Assembly (NCBI GenBank): GCA_015296085.1
Contig: DVDT01000061.1
Span: forward strand, 1-33,233
Direction: 5' to 3'
Length of the DNA stretch: 33,233 nucleotides
Source: Trichormus sp. M33_DOE_039
GTDB lineage: Bacteria; Cyanobacteriota; Cyanobacteriia; Cyanobacteriales; Nostocaceae
Part shown: piece after piece, positions 17,193 to 29,094 of the stretch
Layout of the letters: every line of letters starts with the position of its first letter
Numbering within the stretch: position 1 is the first letter of the stretch
Made by a program: the position numbers and the translations under genes
Notes under the pieces: generated by a model
Seen by the model: only the letters and a program-made list of their open reading frames with translations
Told to the model about the DNA's origin: nothing
Database searches by the model: none

Positions 17193-20075
17193 GTGACAGA
17201 AACCGGAAGTTACAAAGATACTGTAAATTTACCCAAGACTAGTTTTGATATGCGGGCGAACGCCATCAAGCGTGAACCTGAGATACAGAAGTTTTGGGAA
17301 GAAAATCAAATTTTTGAGAGCCTGTCGCAAAATAACCCAGGCGAATTATTTATACTGCACGATGGGCCTCCCTACGCAAACGGCTCACTTCATATTGGTC
17401 ATGCCTTAAATAAAATTCTCAAAGATATTATTAATCGCTACCAACTGCTACAAGGGCGGAAGGTGCGCTATGTGCCTGGTTGGGACTGTCACGGCTTACC
17501 AATTGAGTTGAAGGTTTTACAAAATCTCAAGTCGGCAGAACGGCAAAATTTAACACCTCTGCAATTGCGGCAAAAAGCGAAGGAATTTGCTTTGGCGACC
17601 GTTGATGACCAACGCCAAAGTTTTAAACGCTATGGGGTTTGGGGTGACTGGGATAACCCATATTTGACGCTGAAGCCAGAATATGAGGCGGCACAAATTG
17701 GGGTGTTCGGTGAGATGTATTTAAAAGGTTACATCTATCGGGGTTTGAAGCCGGTTCACTGGAGTCCTAGTTCTAAGACGGCTTTGGCTGAGGCGGAGTT
17801 GGAATATCCTGAAGGTCATACTTCGCGGAGTATTTATGCGGCGTTTCCTGTGACGGGTTTGGCTGAGGCGGTTAAGTCTGTTTTGGGTGAGTATTTGCCG
17901 GATTTGGGTGTGGCTGTCTGGACTACTACTCCTTGGACTATTCCGGGGAATTTGGCGGTGGCGGTTAATGGCGACCTCAATTATTCTTTAGTGGAAATCT
18001 CACGCAAAGGCGCAGAGACGCAAAGTAAATTCAAGTATTTGATTGTGGCGGCGGAGTTGGTGGAACGCTTGGCGGCTACTATCTCGGCTGAGTTGACGGT
18101 GAAAGCAACTTTCAAGGGGCAGGATTTAGAACATACTACTTACCGACATCCTTTATTTGACCGGGAAAGTCCGGTGGTTGTGGGTGGTGATTATATCACT
18201 ACTGAATCGGGTACTGGGTTGGTGCATACTGCGCCTGGTCATGGTCAAGAAGACTACATTGTCGGTTTGCGTTATGGTCTGCCGATTCTTGCGCCTGTGG
18301 ATGATAATGGCAACTTTACTGAGGAAGCGGGACAGTTTGCTGGGTTGAATGTTCTGGGTGATGGGAATCAGGCGGTAATTGATGCGTTGACAGCTGCGGG
18401 TTCGTTGTTGAAGGAGGAGGCTTACGCGCATAAGTATCCTTACGACTGGCGGACGAAGAAGCCGACGATTTTCCGCGCTACTGAACAGTGGTTTGCTTCG
18501 GTGGCGGGATTTCGGGAAGATGCACTGAAAGCGATCGCTTCTGTAAAATGGATACCAGCCCAAGGTGAAAATCGCATCACGCCAATGGTGGCGGAACGTT
18601 CTGATTGGTGTATCTCTCGTCAGCGTTCTTGGGGTGTGCCAATTCCGGTATTCTACGATGAGGAAACGGGCGAACCTTTACTCAATGAGGAAACTATCAA
18701 CCATGTGCAAGCTATCATTGCCGAAAAAGGTTCTGATGCTTGGTGGGAATTGTCGGTAGAGGAATTATTACCAGAGTCCTACAGAAATAATGGTCGGTCT
18801 TACCGTCGCGGGACTGACACAATGGATGTTTGGTTTGATTCTGGTTCGTCTTGGGCTTCTGTGGTCAAGCAGCGTTCTGAGTTGCGTTACCCGGCTGATA
18901 TGTATTTAGAAGGTTCAGACCAGCATCGCGGTTGGTTTCAGTCGAGTTTGTTGACTAGTGTAGCTGTGAATGGGATTGCACCTTATAAAACTGTGTTAAC
19001 TCACGGCTTTGTTCTCGATGAACAAGGGCGCAAGATGAGTAAATCAGTGGGGAATGTGGTTGACCCACAGGTGATGATTCTGGGTGGAAAAAACCAGAAA
19101 CAAGAACCACCCTATGGTGCAGATGTGTTGCGGTTATGGGTGTCGTCGGTTGATTACACGGCTGATGTGCGGTTGGGTAGCAATATCATTAAGCAACTCA
19201 ACGATGTCAGAGGTAAGATTCGCAATACGGCGCGGTTCTTGTTGGGAAGTTTGCATGATTTTGACCCTGAAAAAGATGCAGTACCTTTTGAGAAGTTACC
19301 GCAGCTAGATCAATATATGCTGCACCGCATTCGTGAGGTGTTCCAGGAAGTAACAGAAGCTTTTGAAAGTTTCCAATTCTTCCGGTTCTTCCAAACAGTG
19401 CAGAATTTCTGCGTGGTGGATTTATCTAACTTCTATTTAGATGTAGCGAAAGATAGACTGTACATCAGTGCGCCAAACTCTTTCCGTCGTCGTAGTTGTC
19501 AGACAGTTATCCACATCGCTTTAGAGAATTTAGCACGAGCGATCGCACCTGTTCTATGTCACACTGCTGAAGATATCTGGCAATATCTCCCCTACAAAAC
19601 ACCCTACAAATCAGTGTTTCAAGCTGGTTGGGTTAAGTTAGAGGATAAATGGCATAATCCAGAGTTGGCGGAATCTTGGCAACAATTACGTCAGTTGCGG
19701 ACTGATGTGAACAAGGTTTTAGAACAAGCTAGGATAGAAAAAATGATTGGTTCTTCCCTAGAAGCGAAAGCTTTGATTTACGTCAGCGATGAAAAAGCAC
19801 GTACCGCCATTGCAACTTTAAATCCTGTTAGCGGTAACGGTATCGATGAACTGCGCTATTTATTCCTCACTTCGCAGGTTGAGTTATTAGATTCACCTGA
19901 AAAATTGCCAGATGTGAAATATAACTTGCAATCTGATAATTGGGGAATTGGGGTAGTGAATGCAGACGGCGAAAAATGCGATCGCTGTTGGAATTATTCT
20001 ACTACTGTAGGAGAATCTCAAGAGCATCCCTTAATTTGCGATCGTTGTGTTTCCGCCTTAGCTGGCGAGTTTTAA
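17193..20075 (+). CDS. ileS: Isoleucyl-tRNA synthetase
   Basis: The 960-residue class I synthetase charges tRNA-Ile with isoleucine. The HIGH motif is at 67-70 (SLHIGHALNK) and KMSKS at 614-618. The editing domain lies between them. A C-terminal zinc site has C929, C932, C949 and C952 (CDRC twice). The start is GTG; the nearby ATG at 17185 runs into a stop after three codons. Residues 271-278 (RKGAETQS) are encoded by a copy of a repeat normally found between Nostoc genes (about 18001-18027), inserted in frame in the editing domain. The last 20 codons also exist in a diverged second version at 24155-24217, on the far side of the WD40-KAP gene. A terminator follows at 20128-20154. Confidence 0.96.
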   Translation: MTETGSYKDTVNLPKTSFDMRANAIKREPEIQKFWEENQIFESLSQNNPGELFILHDGPPYANGSLHIGHALNKILKDIINRYQLLQGRKVRYVPGWDCHGLPIELKVLQNLKSAERQNLTPLQLRQKAKEFALATVDDQRQSFKRYGVWGDWDNPYLTLKPEYEAAQIGVFGEMYLKGYIYRGLKPVHWSPSSKTALAEAELEYPEGHTSRSIYAAFPVTGLAEAVKSVLGEYLPDLGVAVWTTTPWTIPGNLAVAVNGDLNYSLVEISRKGAETQSKFKYLIVAAELVERLAATISAELTVKATFKGQDLEHTTYRHPLFDRESPVVVGGDYITTESGTGLVHTAPGHGQEDYIVGLRYGLPILAPVDDNGNFTEEAGQFAGLNVLGDGNQAVIDALTAAGSLLKEEAYAHKYPYDWRTKKPTIFRATEQWFASVAGFREDALKAIASVKWIPAQGENRITPMVAERSDWCISRQRSWGVPIPVFYDEETGEPLLNEETINHVQAIIAEKGSDAWWELSVEELLPESYRNNGRSYRRGTDTMDVWFDSGSSWASVVKQRSELRYPADMYLEGSDQHRGWFQSSLLTSVAVNGIAPYKTVLTHGFVLDEQGRKMSKSVGNVVDPQVMILGGKNQKQEPPYGADVLRLWVSSVDYTADVRLGSNIIKQLNDVRGKIRNTARFLLGSLHDFDPEKDAVPFEKLPQLDQYMLHRIREVFQEVTEAFESFQFFRFFQTVQNFCVVDLSNFYLDVAKDRLYISAPNSFRRRSCQTVIHIALENLARAIAPVLCHTAEDIWQYLPYKTPYKSVFQAGWVKLEDKWHNPELAESWQQLRQLRTDVNKVLEQARIEKMIGSSLEAKALIYVSDEKARTAIATLNPVSGNGIDELRYLFLTSQVELLDSPEKLPDVKYNLQSDNWGIGVVNADGEKCDRCWNYSTTVGESQEHPLICDRCVSALAGEF
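18001..18027. repeat. Intergenic-type CGCAAAG repeat inside ileS
   Basis: CACGCAAAGGCGCAGAGACG followed by CAAAG is the ACGCAAAG/GCGCAGAG repeat seen many times between genes of filamentous cyanobacteria (from memory of such genomes). Here it is 27 bp in length, in frame, and adds about nine residues to the editing domain. Confidence 0.6.
20012..20075 (+). repeat. Direct repeat A: current 3' end of ileS
   Basis: The last 64 bp of ileS match 24154-24217 at 56 of 64 positions. With its partner it flanks the segment that carries the repeat array and the WD40-KAP gene, like the two attachment sites of an element inserted at a gene end. Confidence 0.85.
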
Positions 20076-20127
20076 TTGTTGCACCACAAAGGTTTTGTTG
20101 TTTCGTCTACGTAAATTTAATTAATCT

Positions 20128-20154
20128 AACCCTTCTCTGTGTCAGAGAGGGGTT
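20128..20154 (+). terminator. Stem-loop terminator of ileS
   Basis: A 12-bp stem, AACCCTTCTCTG (20128-20139) with CAGAGAGGGGTT (20143-20154), has one G-U pair and a 3-base loop, and is followed by a weak T-rich run. Confidence 0.75.
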
Positions 20155-20201
20155 TAATTATGTTTACTTTTCCAGCCAATTAGAAATTAATCTGTCTTTT
20201 T

Positions 20202-20400
20202 GTTTGCTAAATCTACTGAAATGAGAAAGCATTTACAACAAATGAGTTAACAAACTGCGGTTTGTTTGCTGAATCTACTGAAATGAGTTAACAAACTGCG
20301 GTTTACTTGCTAAATCTACTGAAATGAGAAAGCATTTACAACAAATGAGTTAACAAACTGCGGTTTGCTTGCTAAATCTACTGAAATGAGAAAGCATTCA
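20202..20400. repeat. Tandem array of a 62-bp repeat upstream of the WD40-KAP gene
   Basis: The core AATCTACTGAAATGAG recurs at 20210, 20272, 20313 and 20375, so the spacing is 62, 41 and 62 bp; the second unit has lost 21 bp. Full units contain GAAAGCATTTACAACAAATG and AGTTAACAAACTGCGGTTT. The unit junctions can form AACAAAC/GTTTGTT hairpins, perfect only at 20249-20266. Directly downstream a 9-bp hairpin, AGAAAGCAA (20410-20418) with TTGCTTTCT (20428-20436), uses the same GAAAGCA word. I see no coding potential. Confidence 0.85.
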
Positions 20401-20556
20401 AGCATTTTCAGAAAGCAAACAGACATATTGCTTTCTCATATTCTCCTACACCCCACACCCTTACTTGTAAACAAACTTGTAAACCTATTTACAATCAAAT
20501 ATTAACAGTGAACAATTACTACAGCCGCATAAAAAATTACTAGTAACATCACTGGT

Positions 20557-23500
20557 ATGGAACTAAACCCACGGCAAGAAGTAGCAATACCAGAACCGAA
20601 AACACCGATAATTGCAACCTTTAATTTTAATAGTCCAGTCAGGACAGTAGCCATCTCACCTAATGGACAGGATATTGCTCTAGGTTTAGAAAATGGCACA
20701 ATAGAAATCTGGAATTTACTGATTGGGCAGAAATCGGTTAGCTTGAATGGACATAAATCTTCGGTCTATTCAGTTGCCTTTAGTCCAGATGGCACAAAAA
20801 TTGTCAGTGGCAGTGGTGACACTACAGTAAGGTTGTGGAATCTCCAAGGTCAACCCCTCGCTGAACCATTCCAGGGACATAAAAATTGGGTTAATTTCGT
20901 TGCTTTTAGTCCAAATGGCCAAACAATTGCCAGTAGCAGTGGTGACAAGACAGTAAGGTTGTGGGATCTCCAAGGTCAACCCCTCGCTGAACCATTCCAG
21001 GGACATGAATCTTCAGTTTATTCAGTCGCCTTTAGTCCTCCAGATGGCAAAACCATTGTCAGTGGCAGTCATGACACGACAATGCGGTTGTGGGATTTGC
21101 AAGGACGACCCATCAGTGAACCATTCCAGGGACATGAAAATGGAGTCATTTCAGTCGCCTTTAGCCCAGATGGCAAAACCATTGTCAGTGGCAGTGATGA
21201 CAAAACAGTGCGGTTGTGGGATTTGCAAGGAAAACCCATCGGTGAACCATTCCGGGGACATGAAAATGGGGTCATTTCAGTCGCCTTTAGTCCAGATGGC
21301 AAAACCATTGTCAGTGGCAGTGATGACAAGACAGTGCGGTTGTGGGATCTACAAGGAAAACCCATTGGTGAACCATTCCGGGGACATAAAAAATCGGTCT
21401 ATTCAGTCACCTTTAGTCCAGATGGTACAAAAATTGTCAGTGGCAGTCTTGACCAAACAGTGCGGTTGTGGAATCTGCAAGAACCAAAACTGTATATTAA
21501 TCGCATCGCCGAAGCTTTTCGCAACGACAAACCCACAGGCGAAGACGCACTTGATGTAGGCAAAGAACTCCGCGCCATAGCCGATGTTTTAATGTTGCGG
21601 AGTCTTCAACCCCCCTTAGCCGTCGCCATTCTCGGTAGTTGGGGTAGTGGTAAATCTTTTGGTATGCACCTCATCAAGCAGCAAATTAATAAAATTCGCT
21701 GTCAACGACTCACCGCCAAACAAGCATGGAACAATAATGCTAATAATCCTAGTCTTTCGCCTTTTGTTGGTCACGTTTACCAAATAGAATTTAACGCTTG
21801 GAGTTACGCCAAATCTGATCTGTGGGCAAGTTTAATGCAAACAATTTTTGATCAACTTGACCGTCAGTTAACCTTAGAAAAGCAATTAGGAGAACTTACA
21901 CCTTTACTCGAAGGTGGTGATATTTGGCGTGTCCTCAATCAGATGAGTGAGAGTGATAGGAAAGAAATCTTAGAATCTGGATTGCGAGAAGACTTTAAGC
22001 AATTTAAAGATAAAACCTCAGAAAATGAACTCTGGAAAATTCTCCGTCAAGTCAGAGAAGAAGAACAAGAAAAACTAGAAGAAACCGAGAAAAAACTCCA
22101 AACAGCACAAATAGATAAAGAGCAGATTGAGCAAGAATTACAACAATATAACGAGCAAATCGAGCAACAAGTCAATAAAGAAATCAGAAACACAGCAATA
22201 GTTACTGTATTTCTAGCGCAGCTGAAAGAATTAAGTAAAGATAAATTTGGTGATTCCATCTTAAAAGAATTTTTAAATTCATATGGTTTTAAAAATAAAG
22301 AAGATTTAAAAACTCAATTGTCTTTAGATTTAAATCTATTATGTGAAAATCCTAATCTTATAGAACAAGCTGAAAAAATAATTAAAACTAAAAATGAAAA
22401 AATAGCTACTGTAATTGATAAGTCTCAAAAACTCAAATACTTTTTAGAATCACAGCCAGCTAAAATAGTAGGTTTAATCGATTTTTTTAAGAAAGACACC
22501 AAAAATTTAGTTATATTGATTATTTGGATAATTTTGCCATTCGGCGTTTATTTTGGTATTATTAAATTTCTCATACCTAATTTACCAGCATTATCAAACC
22601 TACTCACAATATTCAAGAATTCCCTTACAGCATTATTTACAATACCTGCAATCTTCCAAGGGACAAAAGTATTTAAAACCATCAGAAGATTCCAAATTCA
22701 AGCAGCCTGTTTTTTAAAATCAGCCAAAGAAAATATAGATAAAGAAAAACAAAATTTAGATGCTAAAAAACAAGAAATTATTGATATAAAAATTAACGAA
22801 CAGCGTCAGCAAACGCAAAAAATAAATGAACAATTACCAAGTGACAAACTAGCAGATAAAGAAGAAGAAATCCAAGACCTACAAGCACAAATAGAAATTC
22901 AAAAACAACGTGCCGGCTTAACTGCTCAATACACCTCACTATCAGAGTTTATCAACAAGCGTTTAGAAGAGGATGCTTATCAAAAACTCTTAGGTATAAT
23001 GCACCAAATCCAAGATGACTTACAAGATTTATCTGACCACTTGACATATAAACCAGGAAATCAAAATAAACTCAAAATTCTCAAAGAATATTTCCCCAGA
23101 GGCCCAGCTAGAATAGTTCTTTACATAGATGATTTAGACCGTTGTCCTCCCAACACAGTAGTCCAAGTTTTAGAAGCAGTACAATTACTGTTAAATACAG
23201 AAATATTCGTCGTAATTTTAGCCATAGATGACCGCTATATTAGCCGCGCTTTAGAAACAAGCTACAAAGGAGTTTTAAAACGTGGTGGAACACCTTCTGG
23301 TGTTGACTATTTAGAAAAGATTATCCAAATTCCTTATAAGATGCGACCGATAGCTGATGCAAAAATTTTAGAAAGCTACTTGAAGTCGCTAATTGATATC
23401 AAAATAGAAGAAGATTCTCAAGTAGAACCTAGTGCCCTAGAGATATCAGAATCTAGAATTAACCCATTAGATAATCCGAGTCAAGTTCTGAAAGAGGAAG

Positions 23501-24138
23501 ATATTCAAAATGAAATTCAGGGGACATTTCAAATGCAAAGGATTGAACCTGAAGCATTACAAGTGTTACAGCAACAGAGTGAAGAATTACTATTAGTTGA
23601 AAAATTCACTCAAGCAGAATTCGATACGATTAAAGAATGTTGTAAACACGTTGACCTTACCCCCAGAACAGCTAAACGCCTAATTAATATTTGCAAAATT
23701 ATCAAAATTATCTGGACACCCACACCCAATGATATAACATGGGAGCAAGAACCAAAAAAAGAAGTGAAGCAAACCTTAATTGCATTTCTTGCTTTAGCTG
23801 GCAGATATACTGGTCAAATGAGAAAAATCTTAGAAGAAATTTATTTCAAATTTGAAGAACAAAATGAACAAACAATAATTATCGAAAAAGATGAATTTAT
23901 TAAAGAATTAGAAAAGGAACATTATTTTATAGATATGTATAACAAAAGAGAATGGCATAAATTTAAAAATGACTTTATAAAAATGCCACCATCACAAAAT
24001 TTTATTTTTGAAAAGAGAACTTTTAATTTAGCCACCTCTTTTTGTTTTGTAGGTGACGTTGGCTATGACCCCGATGATTATTACAATCCTCAATATAATG
24101 CTGAAAATGGTCAAAAGATGAGCAACAATCAACAGTAA
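20557..24138 (+). CDS. WD40-propeller/KAP P-loop NTPase fusion, membrane-anchored
   Basis: The 1193-residue protein starts with seven WD40 repeats (about 20-310), enough for one complete propeller. A KAP-family P-loop NTPase follows, with Walker A GSWGSGKS (360-367) and Walker B YIDDLDRC (856-863). As in other KAP proteins, the NTPase is split by a long insert with coiled coils (about 490-550 and 720-790) and two membrane segments (about 651-673 and 682-703). Blades 2-7 lie on 126-bp DNA units, and blades 5 and 6 are almost identical. KAP NTPases include PifA of plasmid F, which blocks phage T7. A WD40 sensor joined to a signalling NTPase suggests a defence receptor, but this is inference. 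The ATG at 20557 has no clear ribosome-binding site. The gene has no HIP1. Confidence 0.85.
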   Translation: MELNPRQEVAIPEPKTPIIATFNFNSPVRTVAISPNGQDIALGLENGTIEIWNLLIGQKSVSLNGHKSSVYSVAFSPDGTKIVSGSGDTTVRLWNLQGQPLAEPFQGHKNWVNFVAFSPNGQTIASSSGDKTVRLWDLQGQPLAEPFQGHESSVYSVAFSPPDGKTIVSGSHDTTMRLWDLQGRPISEPFQGHENGVISVAFSPDGKTIVSGSDDKTVRLWDLQGKPIGEPFRGHENGVISVAFSPDGKTIVSGSDDKTVRLWDLQGKPIGEPFRGHKKSVYSVTFSPDGTKIVSGSLDQTVRLWNLQEPKLYINRIAEAFRNDKPTGEDALDVGKELRAIADVLMLRSLQPPLAVAILGSWGSGKSFGMHLIKQQINKIRCQRLTAKQAWNNNANNPSLSPFVGHVYQIEFNAWSYAKSDLWASLMQTIFDQLDRQLTLEKQLGELTPLLEGGDIWRVLNQMSESDRKEILESGLREDFKQFKDKTSENELWKILRQVREEEQEKLEETEKKLQTAQIDKEQIEQELQQYNEQIEQQVNKEIRNTAIVTVFLAQLKELSKDKFGDSILKEFLNSYGFKNKEDLKTQLSLDLNLLCENPNLIEQAEKIIKTKNEKIATVIDKSQKLKYFLESQPAKIVGLIDFFKKDTKNLVILIIWIILPFGVYFGIIKFLIPNLPALSNLLTIFKNSLTALFTIPAIFQGTKVFKTIRRFQIQAACFLKSAKENIDKEKQNLDAKKQEIIDIKINEQRQQTQKINEQLPSDKLADKEEEIQDLQAQIEIQKQRAGLTAQYTSLSEFINKRLEEDAYQKLLGIMHQIQDDLQDLSDHLTYKPGNQNKLKILKEYFPRGPARIVLYIDDLDRCPPNTVVQVLEAVQLLLNTEIFVVILAIDDRYISRALETSYKGVLKRGGTPSGVDYLEKIIQIPYKMRPIADAKILESYLKSLIDIKIEEDSQVEPSALEISESRINPLDNPSQVLKEEDIQNEIQGTFQMQRIEPEALQVLQQQSEELLLVEKFTQAEFDTIKECCKHVDLTPRTAKRLINICKIIKIIWTPTPNDITWEQEPKKEVKQTLIAFLALAGRYTGQMRKILEEIYFKFEEQNEQTIIIEKDEFIKELEKEHYFIDMYNKREWHKFKNDFIKMPPSQNFIFEKRTFNLATSFCFVGDVGYDPDDYYNPQYNAENGQKMSNNQQ
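20749..21481 (+). repeat. WD40-coding tandem repeats, 126-bp unit
   Basis: GGACAT, encoding the Gly-His at the blade start, recurs at 20749, 20875, 21001, 21130, 21256 and 21382. The spacing is 126 bp except for one 129-bp step caused by an extra Pro codon (SPPDG). The copies at 21130 and 21256 differ at only a few bases. Confidence 0.9.
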
Positions 24139-24153
24139 CAATCAAAGCATAGC

Positions 24154-24217
24154 AGAATATCAAGAGCATCCGTTAATTTGCGATCGCTGTGTTTCTGCCT
24201 TAGCTGGTAATTTTTAG
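24154..24217 (+). pseudogene. Direct repeat B: orphan 3' end of ileS
   Basis: In frame this encodes EYQEHPLICDRCVSALAGNF and a stop, against ESQEHPLICDRCVSALAGEF in the intact gene. Of the six amino-acid codons that differ, four are synonymous, and the stop codon differs too (TAG for TAA). It therefore diverged under coding constraint before it was cut off and is probably the original end of the resident ileS. No upstream ileS sequence precedes it. Confidence 0.85.
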
Positions 24218-24254
24218 GTCATAGGGGCTGGGAAAAAGATAAAGTAAAATTACT

Positions 24255-24277
24255 CCTCAATCCCCAGTCCCCAATCC
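24255..24277. repeat. STRR-like C-rich heptamers between the ileS remnant and parA
   Basis: CAATCCCCAGTCCCCAATCC is the reverse-orientation form of the G-rich heptamers seen elsewhere in the window. It ends at the stop codon of the ParA gene. Confidence 0.6.
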
Positions 24278-24278
24278 T

Positions 24279-25163
24279 TTACAACTTCTGCAACAACTCC
24301 TGAGTCAACTGCATAAATGCTTTAGAACCTGCTGACTGGGGTGCATTCAATACTGCCGGCATAAAACTATCAACAGCTTTTGCTACATTAATATCTACTG
24401 GAATTTGTGCCTTACAAATTTGTTCAACACCAAAATCCTCTACAACTCGGTGCATGACTTGTTTGTAATATCTACCAGTCAGTAAATTGGTGTTGCACAT
24501 ACTAAAGACAATTCCCAGCATTTTAATATTTATCTTCGCTTCATGTTCATGACTATCTTTTAGCTGGCCAATACGTCTTTCTAACAGTTGAATTCCTACC
24601 ACAGATAAAGGTTCTGGTTTAGCGGGAAGTAGATAGAAATCACTCGCTGCTAAAGCACTACGTGTCATTAAATTATAGCCAGGAGCGCAATCTAAAAGAA
24701 TAAAATCATACTGATCGCGTACTGGTTTTAAAATGTTATTAATTAAGACACGTTCAAACCGATTCCATACTGTTTCAAAGTCTTGTTCACCCAAAGCCAC
24801 AGTTTGTCTATGCAGCATTTCTGACACGACAAACTCATCATACAAGTCTATATCTCCTGGTAACAAATGTAGCTCTGGTAGATTACAGACTTGAGTTTGA
24901 ATGATATCTTGGATATTTAACTTAGAGTTAGGATCTGGATTAATTACTTCATCAATTAGATATCTAAATGTAAGTCTTTGTTTGCGCCGTTTAGCAAAAT
25001 CTAAAGGCGACATCAAACTAAGCGTAGCACTGATTTGAGTATCTAAATCTAGAACCAGCACCTTTTTACCGTAATTTTTAGCTAAACAAGTAGCCAAATT
25101 CACAGTGAGGGTTGTTTTCCCTACACCACCTTTCATATTTGCAGTTGCAATTACATATCCCAT
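24279..25163 (-). CDS. ParA family ATPase
   Basis: The 294-residue protein is a deviant-Walker ATPase of the ParA/MinD class. The P-loop is KGGVGKTT (11-18), with the signature lysine K11. It is followed by KVLVLDLDTQISAT (Walker A') and FILLDCAPGYN (Walker B). ParA proteins move plasmids, chromosomes or protein cargo by ATP-driven binding to DNA. No N-terminal helix-turn-helix is present, so it resembles the short ParA type. No parB gene adjoins it on the same strand; the only ParB-like gene in the window is 3.2 kb away on the other strand. AGAGGA (complement of 25172-25177) eight bases before the ATG supports the start. Its gene order after the orphan ileS end suggests it was the old neighbour of ileS. 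Confidence 0.9.
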   Translation of the reverse strand: MGYVIATANMKGGVGKTTLTVNLATCLAKNYGKKVLVLDLDTQISATLSLMSPLDFAKRRKQRLTFRYLIDEVINPDPNSKLNIQDIIQTQVCNLPELHLLPGDIDLYDEFVVSEMLHRQTVALGEQDFETVWNRFERVLINNILKPVRDQYDFILLDCAPGYNLMTRSALAASDFYLLPAKPEPLSVVGIQLLERRIGQLKDSHEHEAKINIKMLGIVFSMCNTNLLTGRYYKQVMHRVVEDFGVEQICKAQIPVDINVAKAVDSFMPAVLNAPQSAGSKAFMQLTQELLQKL

Positions 25164-26304: not shown

Positions 26305-26844
26305 TTATATCTGAATTTGTTTAGCAAACAAACTTTGTAACCGATGTAATTGGGGGCCAATTTGGTAGAGTAAGTCACCTTTGCCTAATAGATAGGCGGC
26401 GGATGTTTCTGTACCTCCAAGAACAATTTTAGAGTCTGCTTCGCTAGCAGCCCTCAAGGCGACTCTTCCAGGTAAATTGGAACGGATAATTGGGTTGACA
26501 ATACCTGCTTCTGGACGTTGGGTAGCGATAATGAGATGAATTCCCGCCGCTCTTGCCATTGCACCTAAACGTTTGATACTTTGTTCTAAGGCTTTGCGGA
26601 TTTCTTTTTCCGCCATAAAATCAGCATATTCATCAAAGATGCAAACGATGCGGGGTAAAGGTTGATGAGAACGTTGATTATAGGTGATTAAATCAGCACA
26701 GCTAGCTTTTTCAAACTGCTGATAACGAGATTCCATTTCTAAAACTAATTCTTCCATAAGTTCGGTAGCGCGATCGCTATCTTTCACAACTGGCGAGTGT
26801 AGCCAAGCCATGCGCTCAAACTCTAGAAATGTAACTCGCTTCGG
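26305..26844 (-). pseudogene. FtsK/SpoIIIE-type DNA translocase, 5'-truncated remnant
   Basis: The 168 codons after the only ATG (26809-26811) match the second half of an FtsK/SpoIIIE motor: RIVCIFDEYADFM (Walker B), GAMARAAGIHLIIATQRPEA, then NPIIRSNLPGRVALR and LLGKGDLLY. The Walker A half is absent. The homology continues upstream of that ATG as PKRVTFLEFER, equivalent to the DPKRV strand of the family, until about 26844, and a stop codon lies three codons further up. The gene is therefore cut at its 5' end and not simply started late. It could still be translated as a short protein but cannot hydrolyse ATP alone. It keeps one HIP1 octamer. It probably belonged to a plasmid or conjugative element or a defence locus. 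Confidence 0.8.
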
Positions 26845-26977: not shown

Positions 26978-28369
26978 TTGCTCTTTAACCCTGAGTTTTG
27001 CCGTAATGAAAGCGAAGTAGAAAGCAAACTCATCGTGCAATATTTATTACCACAGCTAGGTTATACTCCAGACACCTGGCATCAGGAAGTTGCTGTAGGT
27101 AGCATCCGGTTAGACTTCTTAGCCTTTGCTGCACAAGTTTTACCCTTTGTCTTAGATGCTAACTCACCATTGAGTGTAGTTATGGAGGCAAAGCATCCCA
27201 AACAAAACTTAAATAATCATGTTCTCAGGCTAAGGCATTATTTAACTAGTTTAAATGTTGGATATGGTTTATTAACTAATGGTAGAGAAATTAGAATTTA
27301 TGAAAAGTCTGAAAGTGATATTAAGCTAGTTTTTCAATGTTCAGGGAAAGAAGTTGAGGCAAAGTTAGAAGAAATTCAAGATTTAATTGGTAGAGATAGC
27401 CTCAAACAAAAACAGTTAATAGATAAGTCAGAAATTCAGATATCTCAAGAAAAACAATTCAACTTACACATTCAGGCTCAAGGCAAATTTTCTATGAAAA
27501 CAATTGCAATCTACCATAATAAAGGCGGAGTTGGCAAAACAACTGTTGCTGTTAATCTTGCTGCTGCATTGAGTAAAAAAGGCAGAAGAGTCCTCTTAGT
27601 TGATATAGACTCTCAAGCAAATACTACTTTTGCTACAGGCTTAATTAAATTTCAATTTGAGGAAGATGATGATTTAAAAGATAAAAATATTTATCATTTG
27701 ATAGAATCAGGAGAATTTAATTATATCCCGGATATTGTGAGACAATCTCAATATTTTAATAATCCTGAAATAGATGTCATCCCTTCTCATATAACTTTAA
27801 TTGAATATCAAGAAAAACTTAATAAAATTGCATCTACCAGAAGAAGACTAGTTAAAAAACTAAATATGGTAGAAAACCATTATGATATTGTTCTCATTGA
27901 TACGCCTCCTTCTAGAGATTATTATGCTGAGATAGCCTTGATAGCGGCTGATTACTTAATCATCCCCTCAGATTTAAAACCATTTGCCAATCAAGGTTTA
28001 CCAACTGTAAAAAATTTTATTAAGGACATCAATGAATATAGAGAAGATATAGGTAAAATGCCTATTAAGATTATGGGTGTTGTTGCCTCTAAAATATCAA
28101 CAAATTCTAAATTTTTACAGTACACTTTTCCAAAGCAAAGAAATGTAATTAAAGAACGCTATAATCTGCCTTTAATGGAAGCAGTAATTTATGATAGAAC
28201 TGTGCTATCAGAGTGCATGAATCAAACAATAACGGTAGGCGAACTAGAGTATCCTGACCCTAAATCTGTTATCAAGTATGCGGAACAATCTAAATCTAAT
28301 GCTCAACAATCAGCTATGGAATTTGAAATTCTAGCAGACGAAGTTCTACAAAAAATGGGAATTAATTAA
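26978..28369 (+). CDS. PD-(D/E)xK nuclease (HsdR N-terminal type) fused to a ParA ATPase
   Basis: Residues 1-125 look like the N-terminal nuclease domain of type I restriction R subunits: helix with E15, RLDFLAF with D46, VVMEAKHP with E70 and K72, then YGLLTNGREIRIYE. The D-ExK set is complete, so the nuclease is probably active. After a linker, a ParA domain starts at about M173, with KGGVGKTT at 182-189, LLVDIDSQANTT and IVLIDTPPS. The start is a TTG with a good AGGGA sequence seven bases upstream; an ATG at the ParA start (27494) could give a separate shorter product. The next gene begins two bases after the stop, so the pair is an operon. I know no characterised protein with this domain order. 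A role in defence or plasmid conflict is inference. Confidence 0.8.
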   Translation: MLFNPEFCRNESEVESKLIVQYLLPQLGYTPDTWHQEVAVGSIRLDFLAFAAQVLPFVLDANSPLSVVMEAKHPKQNLNNHVLRLRHYLTSLNVGYGLLTNGREIRIYEKSESDIKLVFQCSGKEVEAKLEEIQDLIGRDSLKQKQLIDKSEIQISQEKQFNLHIQAQGKFSMKTIAIYHNKGGVGKTTVAVNLAAALSKKGRRVLLVDIDSQANTTFATGLIKFQFEEDDDLKDKNIYHLIESGEFNYIPDIVRQSQYFNNPEIDVIPSHITLIEYQEKLNKIASTRRRLVKKLNMVENHYDIVLIDTPPSRDYYAEIALIAADYLIIPSDLKPFANQGLPTVKNFIKDINEYREDIGKMPIKIMGVVASKISTNSKFLQYTFPKQRNVIKERYNLPLMEAVIYDRTVLSECMNQTITVGELEYPDPKSVIKYAEQSKSNAQQSAMEFEILADEVLQKMGIN

Positions 28370-28371
28370 TA

Positions 28372-29094
28372 ATGAAGTTTTATCTTGTCGATGTGAAAGA
28401 TATTAATTCTGATGTTCCTCGCTCAAATTTTTCTGAAAATGATATAGAAAACCTCGCAGATACTATCCTGGAAAGTGGAGGAATTATCAGACCATTAGTT
28501 TTGAAAGAAACTGATACTGAAGTTTATAAAGTTGTTGACGGACATCTTGAATACTACGCTGCTGTAAGGGCAAAAGAAAAAGATCCAAGAAAAGGGGAAA
28601 TGGTTAATGCTTTTGTCATTTCTCCAAAACTAGAGGATCTAGTTGTAAAGCAAGCATTAATTATTGATAATTTACAAGCATCTCCTGATAAATCTATCAA
28701 ACAAACCACCACAACATTAGAACCGGACACCGCGAAATTAGAATCGCGTTTAACTAATTTAGAACTACGTCTTGAGAGACAAATCAGTAATATGATATCT
28801 GAACTTATGCAAGAAAGGCAAAGAGTAGATAATAGGTTTAAGCATTTTGAAAGTCAGATTCCTCAAAGTGGTGAAATTAATGCTCCACTTCATTTATTAA
28901 ATACATTAGACGAAAATAGTTTGTTTCTTAAATTAAAACGTTCTAGGATTAGTGGAGCAGAAAAAGTTGCTAAATCTATAGTAGAAGCTAGGAAGAAAAA
29001 ACCCCAGAAAGAGTTTGATAACTATCGTGATGTAAAGCAGTCCGTTAAAGGAATGGGTGATATAACTATTTTAACTATTATTGATGAGTGGTAA
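28372..29094 (+). CDS. ParB-like N-terminal domain protein with coiled coil and HhH-like C-terminus
   Basis: The 240-residue protein starts with a ParB/Srx-like domain (1-90): FSENDIENLADTILESGGII, RPLVL and YKVVDGHLEYYAAVRA. In canonical ParB the last motif is GERRxxAA and binds CTP; here it reads GHLEYYAA, so CTP binding is doubtful. A coiled coil follows (about 115-160). The end (about 180-240) has ISGAEKVAKSIVEARKK and VKGMGDITILTIID, which resembles a helix-hairpin-helix DNA-binding pair. It lacks the usual ParB helix-turn-helix middle domain. It is translationally close to the nuclease-ParA gene (2-bp gap), so the two likely act together. A hairpin at 29158-29178 may end the operon. Confidence 0.75.
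   Translation: MKFYLVDVKDINSDVPRSNFSENDIENLADTILESGGIIRPLVLKETDTEVYKVVDGHLEYYAAVRAKEKDPRKGEMVNAFVISPKLEDLVVKQALIIDNLQASPDKSIKQTTTTLEPDTAKLESRLTNLELRLERQISNMISELMQERQRVDNRFKHFESQIPQSGEINAPLHLLNTLDENSLFLKLKRSRISGAEKVAKSIVEARKKKPQKEFDNYRDVKQSVKGMGDITILTIIDEW

What the first reader, a model, noticed from the sequence alone, without database searches (positions are those of the whole stretch)
20012..24217. WD40-KAP gene inserted between two versions of the ileS 3' end
The last 64 bp of ileS recur at 24154-24217 with 56 of 64 identical positions and encode the same C-terminus (18 of 20 residues). Four of the six changed amino-acid codons are synonymous, so the two ends evolved separately as coding sequence. 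Between them lies a HIP1-free segment with one large gene. This is the pattern of an element that enters at the 3' end of a coding gene and brings its own version of the gene end. The use of ileS as such a target, with a single KAP NTPase as cargo and no integrase, seems undescribed.
Basis: partly seen in the sequence, partly recalled or inferred. Interest (0 to 1): 0.85.

Follow-up and report, generated by a model that had tools for sequence, protein, structure and literature searches.

The report
Cargo genes displacing ileS gene ends
In filamentous cyanobacteria the tail of an essential gene (ileS) is a repeated landing place for defence-like genes, which come with a fresh copy of the gene's end and leave the old end downstream as a scar, probably by ordinary DNA recombination.

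Summary
The repeat is real: 20008-20074 (end of ileS) recurs at 24150-24216, 88% over 67 nt, around a WD40-KAP NTPase gene. It is not a one-off. Of 132 Nostocaceae ileS loci, 10 carry a partial displaced ileS end at E<1e-4; three weaker ones have other support. Cargo differs between loci: KAP, Uma2, HNH, PIN, ParE, caspase-like. Of 88 loci with parA nearby, 29 are near-empty, with at most 200 bp. Other gene ends rarely show this: 2 of 513 against 8 of 125 for ileS. In G006 and G009 the working ileS end switches parentage between -109 and -82, next to the -98 edge of the scar in G006, a HIP1 octamer. Mosaic ileS ends exceed a shuffle control across the family but do not peak at -98. Best reading: an integrase-free recombination hotspot, homologous on the ileS side and non-homologous on the other. 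A recombinase acting in trans is not excluded.

The parts
17193..20075 (+). ileS, isoleucyl-tRNA synthetase, intact, 960 aa, with C-terminal zinc finger
   Evidence: ORF and Pfam
19978..19985 (+). HIP1 octamer GCGATCGC at -98..-91 of ileS; present at this place in 118 of 132 loci
20008..20074 (+). functional ileS end, first copy of the repeat
20199..20452 (+). 41-89 nt direct repeats in the spacer upstream of the KAP gene
20557..24138 (+). cargo gene: WD40 repeats plus KAP P-loop NTPase, 1193 aa; Walker A GSWGSGKS at 360, Walker B VLYIDDLDR at 854, hydrophobic stretch near 648-676
24150..24216 (+). displaced ileS end (scar), starting at -68 of ileS
24217..24278 (+). 62-nt spacer between scar and parA, as short as in near-empty sites of relatives
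24279..25163 (-). parA-like gene, right border of the variable interval in 88 of 132 loci

Best explanation
The ileS-parA interval is an integrase-free gene-exchange hotspot. Incoming DNA from a relative carries the last part of ileS and what lies downstream of it. It recombines with the resident ileS by homology on the left (supported by mosaic ileS ends) and is joined on the right, within the resident ileS end, without long homology (inferred). The tRNA synthetase stays whole because the incoming DNA supplies a complete end; the cargo lands behind it; the old end remains downstream as a scar. Scars can later serve as short homology arms for further exchanges (inferred from G006). In this window the WD40-KAP gene is the cargo and 24150-24216 is most likely the end of an ileS that once stood next to parA. 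The KAP protein is most likely a membrane-associated NTPase with a WD40 sensor of the conflict or defence kind (from domains only).
For: 11 displaced ends in 10 of 132 loci, reversed control none below E=1.5. Enriched at ileS against other gene ends, 8 of 125 vs 2 of 513 (Fisher 6e-5, loci related). Near-empty sites, 29 of 88, and L224 against L131 as an occupied and empty pair. In 7 of 11 copies the own end ranks fifth or lower. G006 and G009: the functional end follows G000 left of -98 (20 of 23 and 22 of 23 sites) and L086 from -98 on (18 of 22 and 17 of 22). L086 and G006: -98..-1 is 95% and the Uma2 region 97% identical, while -420..-99 is 73-78% and the gene body 87-92%. Mosaic ileS 3' parts: 53 of 132 loci with gain of at least 8, against 18-28 in ten column shuffles. 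No integrase in the cargo ORFs scanned. About eight distinct scar edges from -174 to -46.
Against: All scar edges lie in the last 174 nt of a 2.9 kb gene, and two of about eight fall exactly on HIP1 at -98, one more inside it; a random join would spread, unless long repeats are lost. In G006 scar edge and functional switch nearly coincide. No displaced parA end was found in 88 intervals against 7 with ileS ends, an asymmetry that simple flank recombination does not predict. Single-locus mosaic gains, such as 16 for G006, lie within the range of shuffles (maximum 20). Parents were chosen after seeing identities. For the window itself the donor end is not identified.
Confidence: 0.6

Rival explanations
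1. Site-specific insertion at the ileS end by a recombinase acting in trans, with the HIP1-containing block at -98 as the preferred site; incoming units carry a replacement gene end.
For: Scar edge exactly at -98 for the X unit (G006, L082, L080) and for L224, and inside HIP1 for L083; post hoc chance 0.0016 and 0.011 for eight events over 129 positions. Functional switch in G006 and G009 between -109 and -82, in L086 between -106 and -73. No displaced parA ends.
Against: Other edges lie at -174, -86, -74, -68 (this window) and -46. No integrase in scanned cargo. Family-wide breakpoints do not peak at -98; only 3 of 53 intervals overlap it. The block is among the more conserved parts of the ileS end, so homologous crossovers there are expected.
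Confidence: 0.2
2. Single-crossover (Campbell-type) integration of a circular molecule that carries cargo plus a piece of ileS end; the scar edge is the edge of the homology on the circle.
For: Direct repeats flank the cargo with a complete first copy and a left-truncated second copy. The X|-98 join occurs with different ileS-end types in G006 and in L082 (50 of 61 identical).
Against: No circle, replication gene or plasmid relative seen; near-match plasmid search of 20076-24300 negative.
Confidence: 0.12
3. Local duplication of the ileS end within one genome, followed by or together with insertion of cargo between the copies.
For: Own end is the best match to the displaced end in L082 and L227 (rank 1 of 132) and second in G000 and L133.
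Against: In 7 of 11 copies other genomes' ends are closer, with own rank up to 70. In the window the differences are mainly synonymous, as for two coding alleles.
Confidence: 0.05

Closest known systems
[quoted passage not shown] 2017, PMC5635113; abstract and passages seen)
   Same: Variable cargo between the same core genes, excess recombination in the flanking core gene, no integrase seen.
   Different: Here the flanking gene's end is itself displaced and left as a scar, on the ileS side only.
Displacement of effector modules in Vibrio by recombination akin to homology-facilitated illegitimate recombination (Kirchberger et al. 2017, PMC5361080; one section and passages seen)
   Same: Anchor homology upstream, non-homologous join downstream, old part shifted behind the new cargo, no integrase.
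   Different: There the displaced parts are immunity genes, proposed to be kept by selection; here the displaced piece is a decaying end of a housekeeping gene.
HIP1-linked recombination (review PMC4390886; passages seen)
   Same: Two scar edges coincide with a HIP1 octamer.
   Different: The review reports hints of site-specific and illegitimate recombination and states that no evidence links HIP1 to homologous recombination; insertion at gene ends did not appear in the passages seen.
KAP NTPases of defence systems (QatA, PifA models of PADLOC)
   Same: Similarity of the NTPase part, E = 3.8e-20 to QatA and 4.3e-7 to PifA.
   Different: WD40 N-terminus; match covers only part of the models; neighbours are ileS and parA.

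Membership tests
Recombination-driven, integrase-free hotspot | different cargo between the same core genes in relatives | tested here: met
Recombination-driven, integrase-free hotspot | excess recombination in the flanking core gene | tested here: inconclusive
   ileS ends are mosaic beyond shuffles (53 vs 18-28 of 132), but no other core gene was compared
Recombination-driven, integrase-free hotspot | no integrase or other mobility gene in the cargo | tested here: inconclusive
   none among 18 cargo proteins of relatives and KAP, except one sub-threshold transposase match in L080; not every ORF of every locus was scanned
Homology-facilitated illegitimate recombination | homologous anchor on one side | tested here: met
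   switch of parentage in functional ileS of G006, G009, L086; not shown for the window
Homology-facilitated illegitimate recombination | non-homologous join on the other side | tested here: inconclusive
   the X unit at 26 other loci shows no HIP1 in the 45 nt displayed after the match, but 16 of those matches end earlier in X; donor of the window's cargo unknown
Integrase-borne island in a gene 3' end | fixed attachment point | tested here: not met
   scar edges at -174, -98, -93/-91, -86, -74, -68, -46
Integrase-borne island in a gene 3' end | recombinase gene on the element | tested here: not met
   KAP is the only ORF of at least 80 aa listed on its own between the copies, apart from ORFs overlapping it or ileS; Pfam WD40 and KAP_NTPase
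Qat defence system | QatA with QatB, QatC and QatD partners | tested here: inconclusive
   seven neighbouring proteins scanned: none named so in Pfam; partner models were searched in PADLOC for three proteins only

The most novel reading that the evidence does not exclude
HIP1, the abundant cyanobacterial octamer of unknown role, is a preferred joining point for incoming DNA: cargo is spliced at the HIP1 inside the ileS zinc-finger codons, so that a housekeeping gene end works as an integrase-free docking site for defence and toxin-antitoxin genes across a family.
Probability: 0.17. Interest if true: 0.75.

Novelty: new variant of a known kind. Interest (0 to 1): 0.5.

Why it matters
The scars record gene arrivals next to an essential gene without mobile-element machinery, and give a simple signature (intact gene end, cargo, truncated old end) by which such gains can be found in any genome. 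The HIP1 edge of some scars makes a long-open question, whether HIP1 takes part in recombination, directly testable.

Tried and rejected
Rejected: chance repeat; the second copy as a gene (it decays in relatives); KAP as the defining part of an element (G008 has it without a repeat, G010 and G006 keep remnants); the HIP1-free stretch as proof of foreign origin. Tested and weakened: I first took sites separating G000 from G009 in G006 as proof of an imported ileS end. A fuller count showed that G006 is mostly G009-like over the whole gene except -412..-225, where G009 has another linker, so that comparison alone proves nothing; searches replaced it. A family-wide peak of breakpoints at -98 was looked for and not found. 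Low G+C of the KAP stretch (0.36 for 20076-24149, 0.403 for the rest of the window) fits foreign origin but is no proof. KAP-part relatives: 27 of 217 family genomes at E<=1e-20; in 29 loci with short flanks, ileS was found beside KAP only in G008. Plasmid search: no match. Literature searches (open-licence papers only) listed nothing that I recognised as describing ileS as such a site; one search listed two papers on ileS, genomic island and integration site that I did not open. Not done: structure prediction, a tree of displaced ends, a formal recombination program, a survey of other core genes.

Full report
Observation. The end of ileS (20008-20074) recurs at 24150-24216 with 88% identity over 67 nt. 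In the own 7.0 Mb genome the search gave these two places only (40 of 63 candidates scored). Between them lies one large gene, 20557-24138, a 1193-residue WD40-KAP NTPase with Walker A and B motifs and a hydrophobic stretch between them. The second copy keeps the ileS frame with mainly synonymous changes, as expected of two alleles that diverged as coding sequence.

Same-genus relatives. The ileS-parA interval varies among the 13 genomes of the genus. G011 has 282 bp. G009, G004, G002 and G012 have a gene homologous to the Uma2 gene of G006 (Pfam run on the G006 protein). G007 has two other small ORFs. G008 has ileS-Uma2-KAP-parA with a 73-74% identical KAP protein and no ileS-end repeat. G010 has Uma2 and a 45-residue KAP remnant. 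G006 has ileS, Uma2, a unit X (HNH protein and a 134-aa protein), a 61-bp ileS-end fragment, a KAP remnant and a second ileS-end copy next to parA. In G001, G003, G005 and G010 parA is elsewhere: on another contig in the drafts G001 and G005, far away on the same contig in G003 and G010.

Wider survey. I assembled 132 ileS loci: 13 of the genus; 76 further named ones (80 returned by one genome-contig scan, 4 duplicates dropped); and 43 family loci. Of the family places listed, I entered 106 in a script, of which 63 duplicated loci already held by coordinates; the rest of the listed places and those not listed were not fetched. No two of the 132 are identical; six have under 1 kb of downstream sequence. 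A profile of the last 180 nt of ileS found 11 displaced ends in 10 loci at E<1e-4: G000, G006 (two), L082, L086, L098, L106, L133, L214, L224, L227; the reversed sequences gave nothing below E=1.5. Blastn with the last 150 nt found the same eleven at E<1e-5 and none on the minus strand at that level. L083 (E=0.042), L216 (0.059) and L080 (0.61) are weak, and a minus-strand hit at 0.058 (L102) shows the noise. I accept L080 and L216 because X is followed by GCGATCGCTGCTG and what look like the last letters of an ileS end just before parA, and L083 because its left flank equals that of L086.

Controls. In 131 loci (window excluded), 8 of 125 ileS 3' ends had a same-genome downstream partial copy of at least 55 bits, against 2 of 513 other ORF 3' ends; for 5' ends, ileS 0 of 67 and others 2 of 463. 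Fisher p for the 3' comparison is 6e-5, rough because loci are related. In the 88 loci with parA within 8 kb downstream, 7 contain a displaced ileS end and none a displaced parA end (thresholds 1e-5 and 1e-3); p = 0.014.

Whose ends are they? Rank of the own functional end among 132 as a match to the displaced end: G000 2, G006 fragment 43, G006 second copy 5, L082 1, L086 11, L098 44, L214 17, L106 70, L133 2, L224 5, L227 1. So 7 of 11 point to exchange, 4 of 11 do not. For the window the best match is G003 (0.896) against the own end (0.881), one nucleotide apart.

Recombination in ileS. G006 and G009 follow G000 left of -98 (20 of 23 and 22 of 23 separating sites) and L086 from there on (18 of 22 and 17 of 22); the switch lies between -109 and -82. 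L086 follows L083 on the left (19 of 24) and G006 on the right (9 of 11). Between L086 and G006 the gene body is 87-92% identical, -420..-99 only 73-78%, but -98..-1 is 95% and the Uma2 region 97%. So the gene end travels with its cargo. A two-parent test on the last 900 nt gave a gain of at least 8 in 53 of 132 loci, against 18-28 in ten column shuffles: mosaics are in excess, but single loci are not proven by it. Breakpoints spread over the 900 nt without a peak at -98; 3 of 53 intervals overlap -99..-91.

G006. It carries two scars. One reading is successive displacement: KAP arrived with one end, later Uma2 and X with another. The other is that an X-bearing locus, as in L080, L216 and L082, took up the KAP part from a G000-like donor by recombination in the scar. 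The fragment is 95% like G000's end, and only 50 of 61 positions agree with the L082 scar although both follow the same X flank. I cannot decide between these; under the second, scars act as homology arms.

Near-empty sites. 29 of 88 loci have at most 200 bp between ileS and parA. In the window the scar is followed by 62 bp and parA. In G006, L082, L086, L216, L080 and L224 the scar also stands 36-123 bp from parA, but in L098 and L214 parA is about 5.5 kb further on, and L106 and L133 have no parA hit in the 8 kb searched. The clearest pair is L224 and Nostoc carneum NIES-2107 (L131): L224's scar plus spacer aligns with ileS-spacer-parA of L131, and cargo stands left of GCGATCGC; L224's functional end is followed by a similar spacer too.

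Scar edges. About eight: -174 (L227), -98 (X unit in G006, L082, L080; L216 alike), -98 (L224), -93/-91 (L083/L086), -86 (L098/L214), -74 (L106), -68 (G000/G006), -46 (L133). HIP1 stands at -98..-91 in 118 of 132 ileS genes. Post hoc chance for two of eight exactly on -98 is 0.0016, for three of eight inside HIP1 0.011. At 26 other genomic places of X none shows GCGATCGC in the 45 nt displayed after the match; 10 of these matches reach the end of X, 16 stop earlier.

Cargo. Eighteen cargo proteins of relatives were scanned: Uma2, HNH (in two genomes), PIN (L106, from two overlapping readings, and below cut-off in L224), ParD and ParE (L133), ParE (L227), caspase plus FGE-sulfatase domain (L106), weak HicB/FitA-like (L224, below cut-off), a sub-threshold transposase match (L080), a sub-threshold DUF, and five without a match, one of these from G007, which has no scar. 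No integrase was named. Most named ones are toxin-antitoxin or conflict-type.

Mechanism. Favoured: homologous recombination on the ileS side and a non-homologous join on the other. Shown: recurrence, near-empty sites, differing cargo, gene ends that travel with cargo. Inferred: the incoming molecule, the right-hand join, the uptake route, and the function of KAP. The nearness of the switch and the scar edge to HIP1 in G006 is the best hint for a recombinase or for HIP1-directed joining.

Literature seen. Oliveira 2017 (PMC5635113, abstract and passages); Kirchberger 2017 (PMC5361080, section 13 and passages); HIP1 review (PMC4390886, passages); PMC10907252 (passages; KAP NTPases named once). 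Other papers were seen as search listings only.

Noticed in passing
L018 (G003) and L021 (G009), ileS before the zinc finger; L082 has a longer match span too: ileS proteins of 1098 residues against about 960 in most relatives: a long in-frame insertion in the linker.
   Followed up: partly
26305-26811 (-): Stand-alone 168-aa FtsK-like protein matching the C-terminal part of the SspH model (9.6e-47), 93-96% identical in the relatives where it was found.
   Followed up: no
26978-29094 (+): ParA-like protein with weak HSDR_N-like matches at its N-terminus, followed by a ParB_N protein.
   Followed up: no
25 of 88 ileS-parA intervals over 5 kb, e.g. L098, L214: A common interval size of about 5.2-5.9 kb with unexamined content.
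   Followed up: no
L020:7490-9062 (G005) and L091:1444-3559: Two other genes with a partial downstream copy of their own 3' end.
   Followed up: no
G003 and G010 chromosome-size contigs: parA lies far from ileS on the same contig, so the ileS end also borders larger rearrangements.
   Followed up: no
20199-20452 (+): Direct repeats of 41-89 nt upstream of the KAP gene; the region is partly kept in G006.
   Followed up: no
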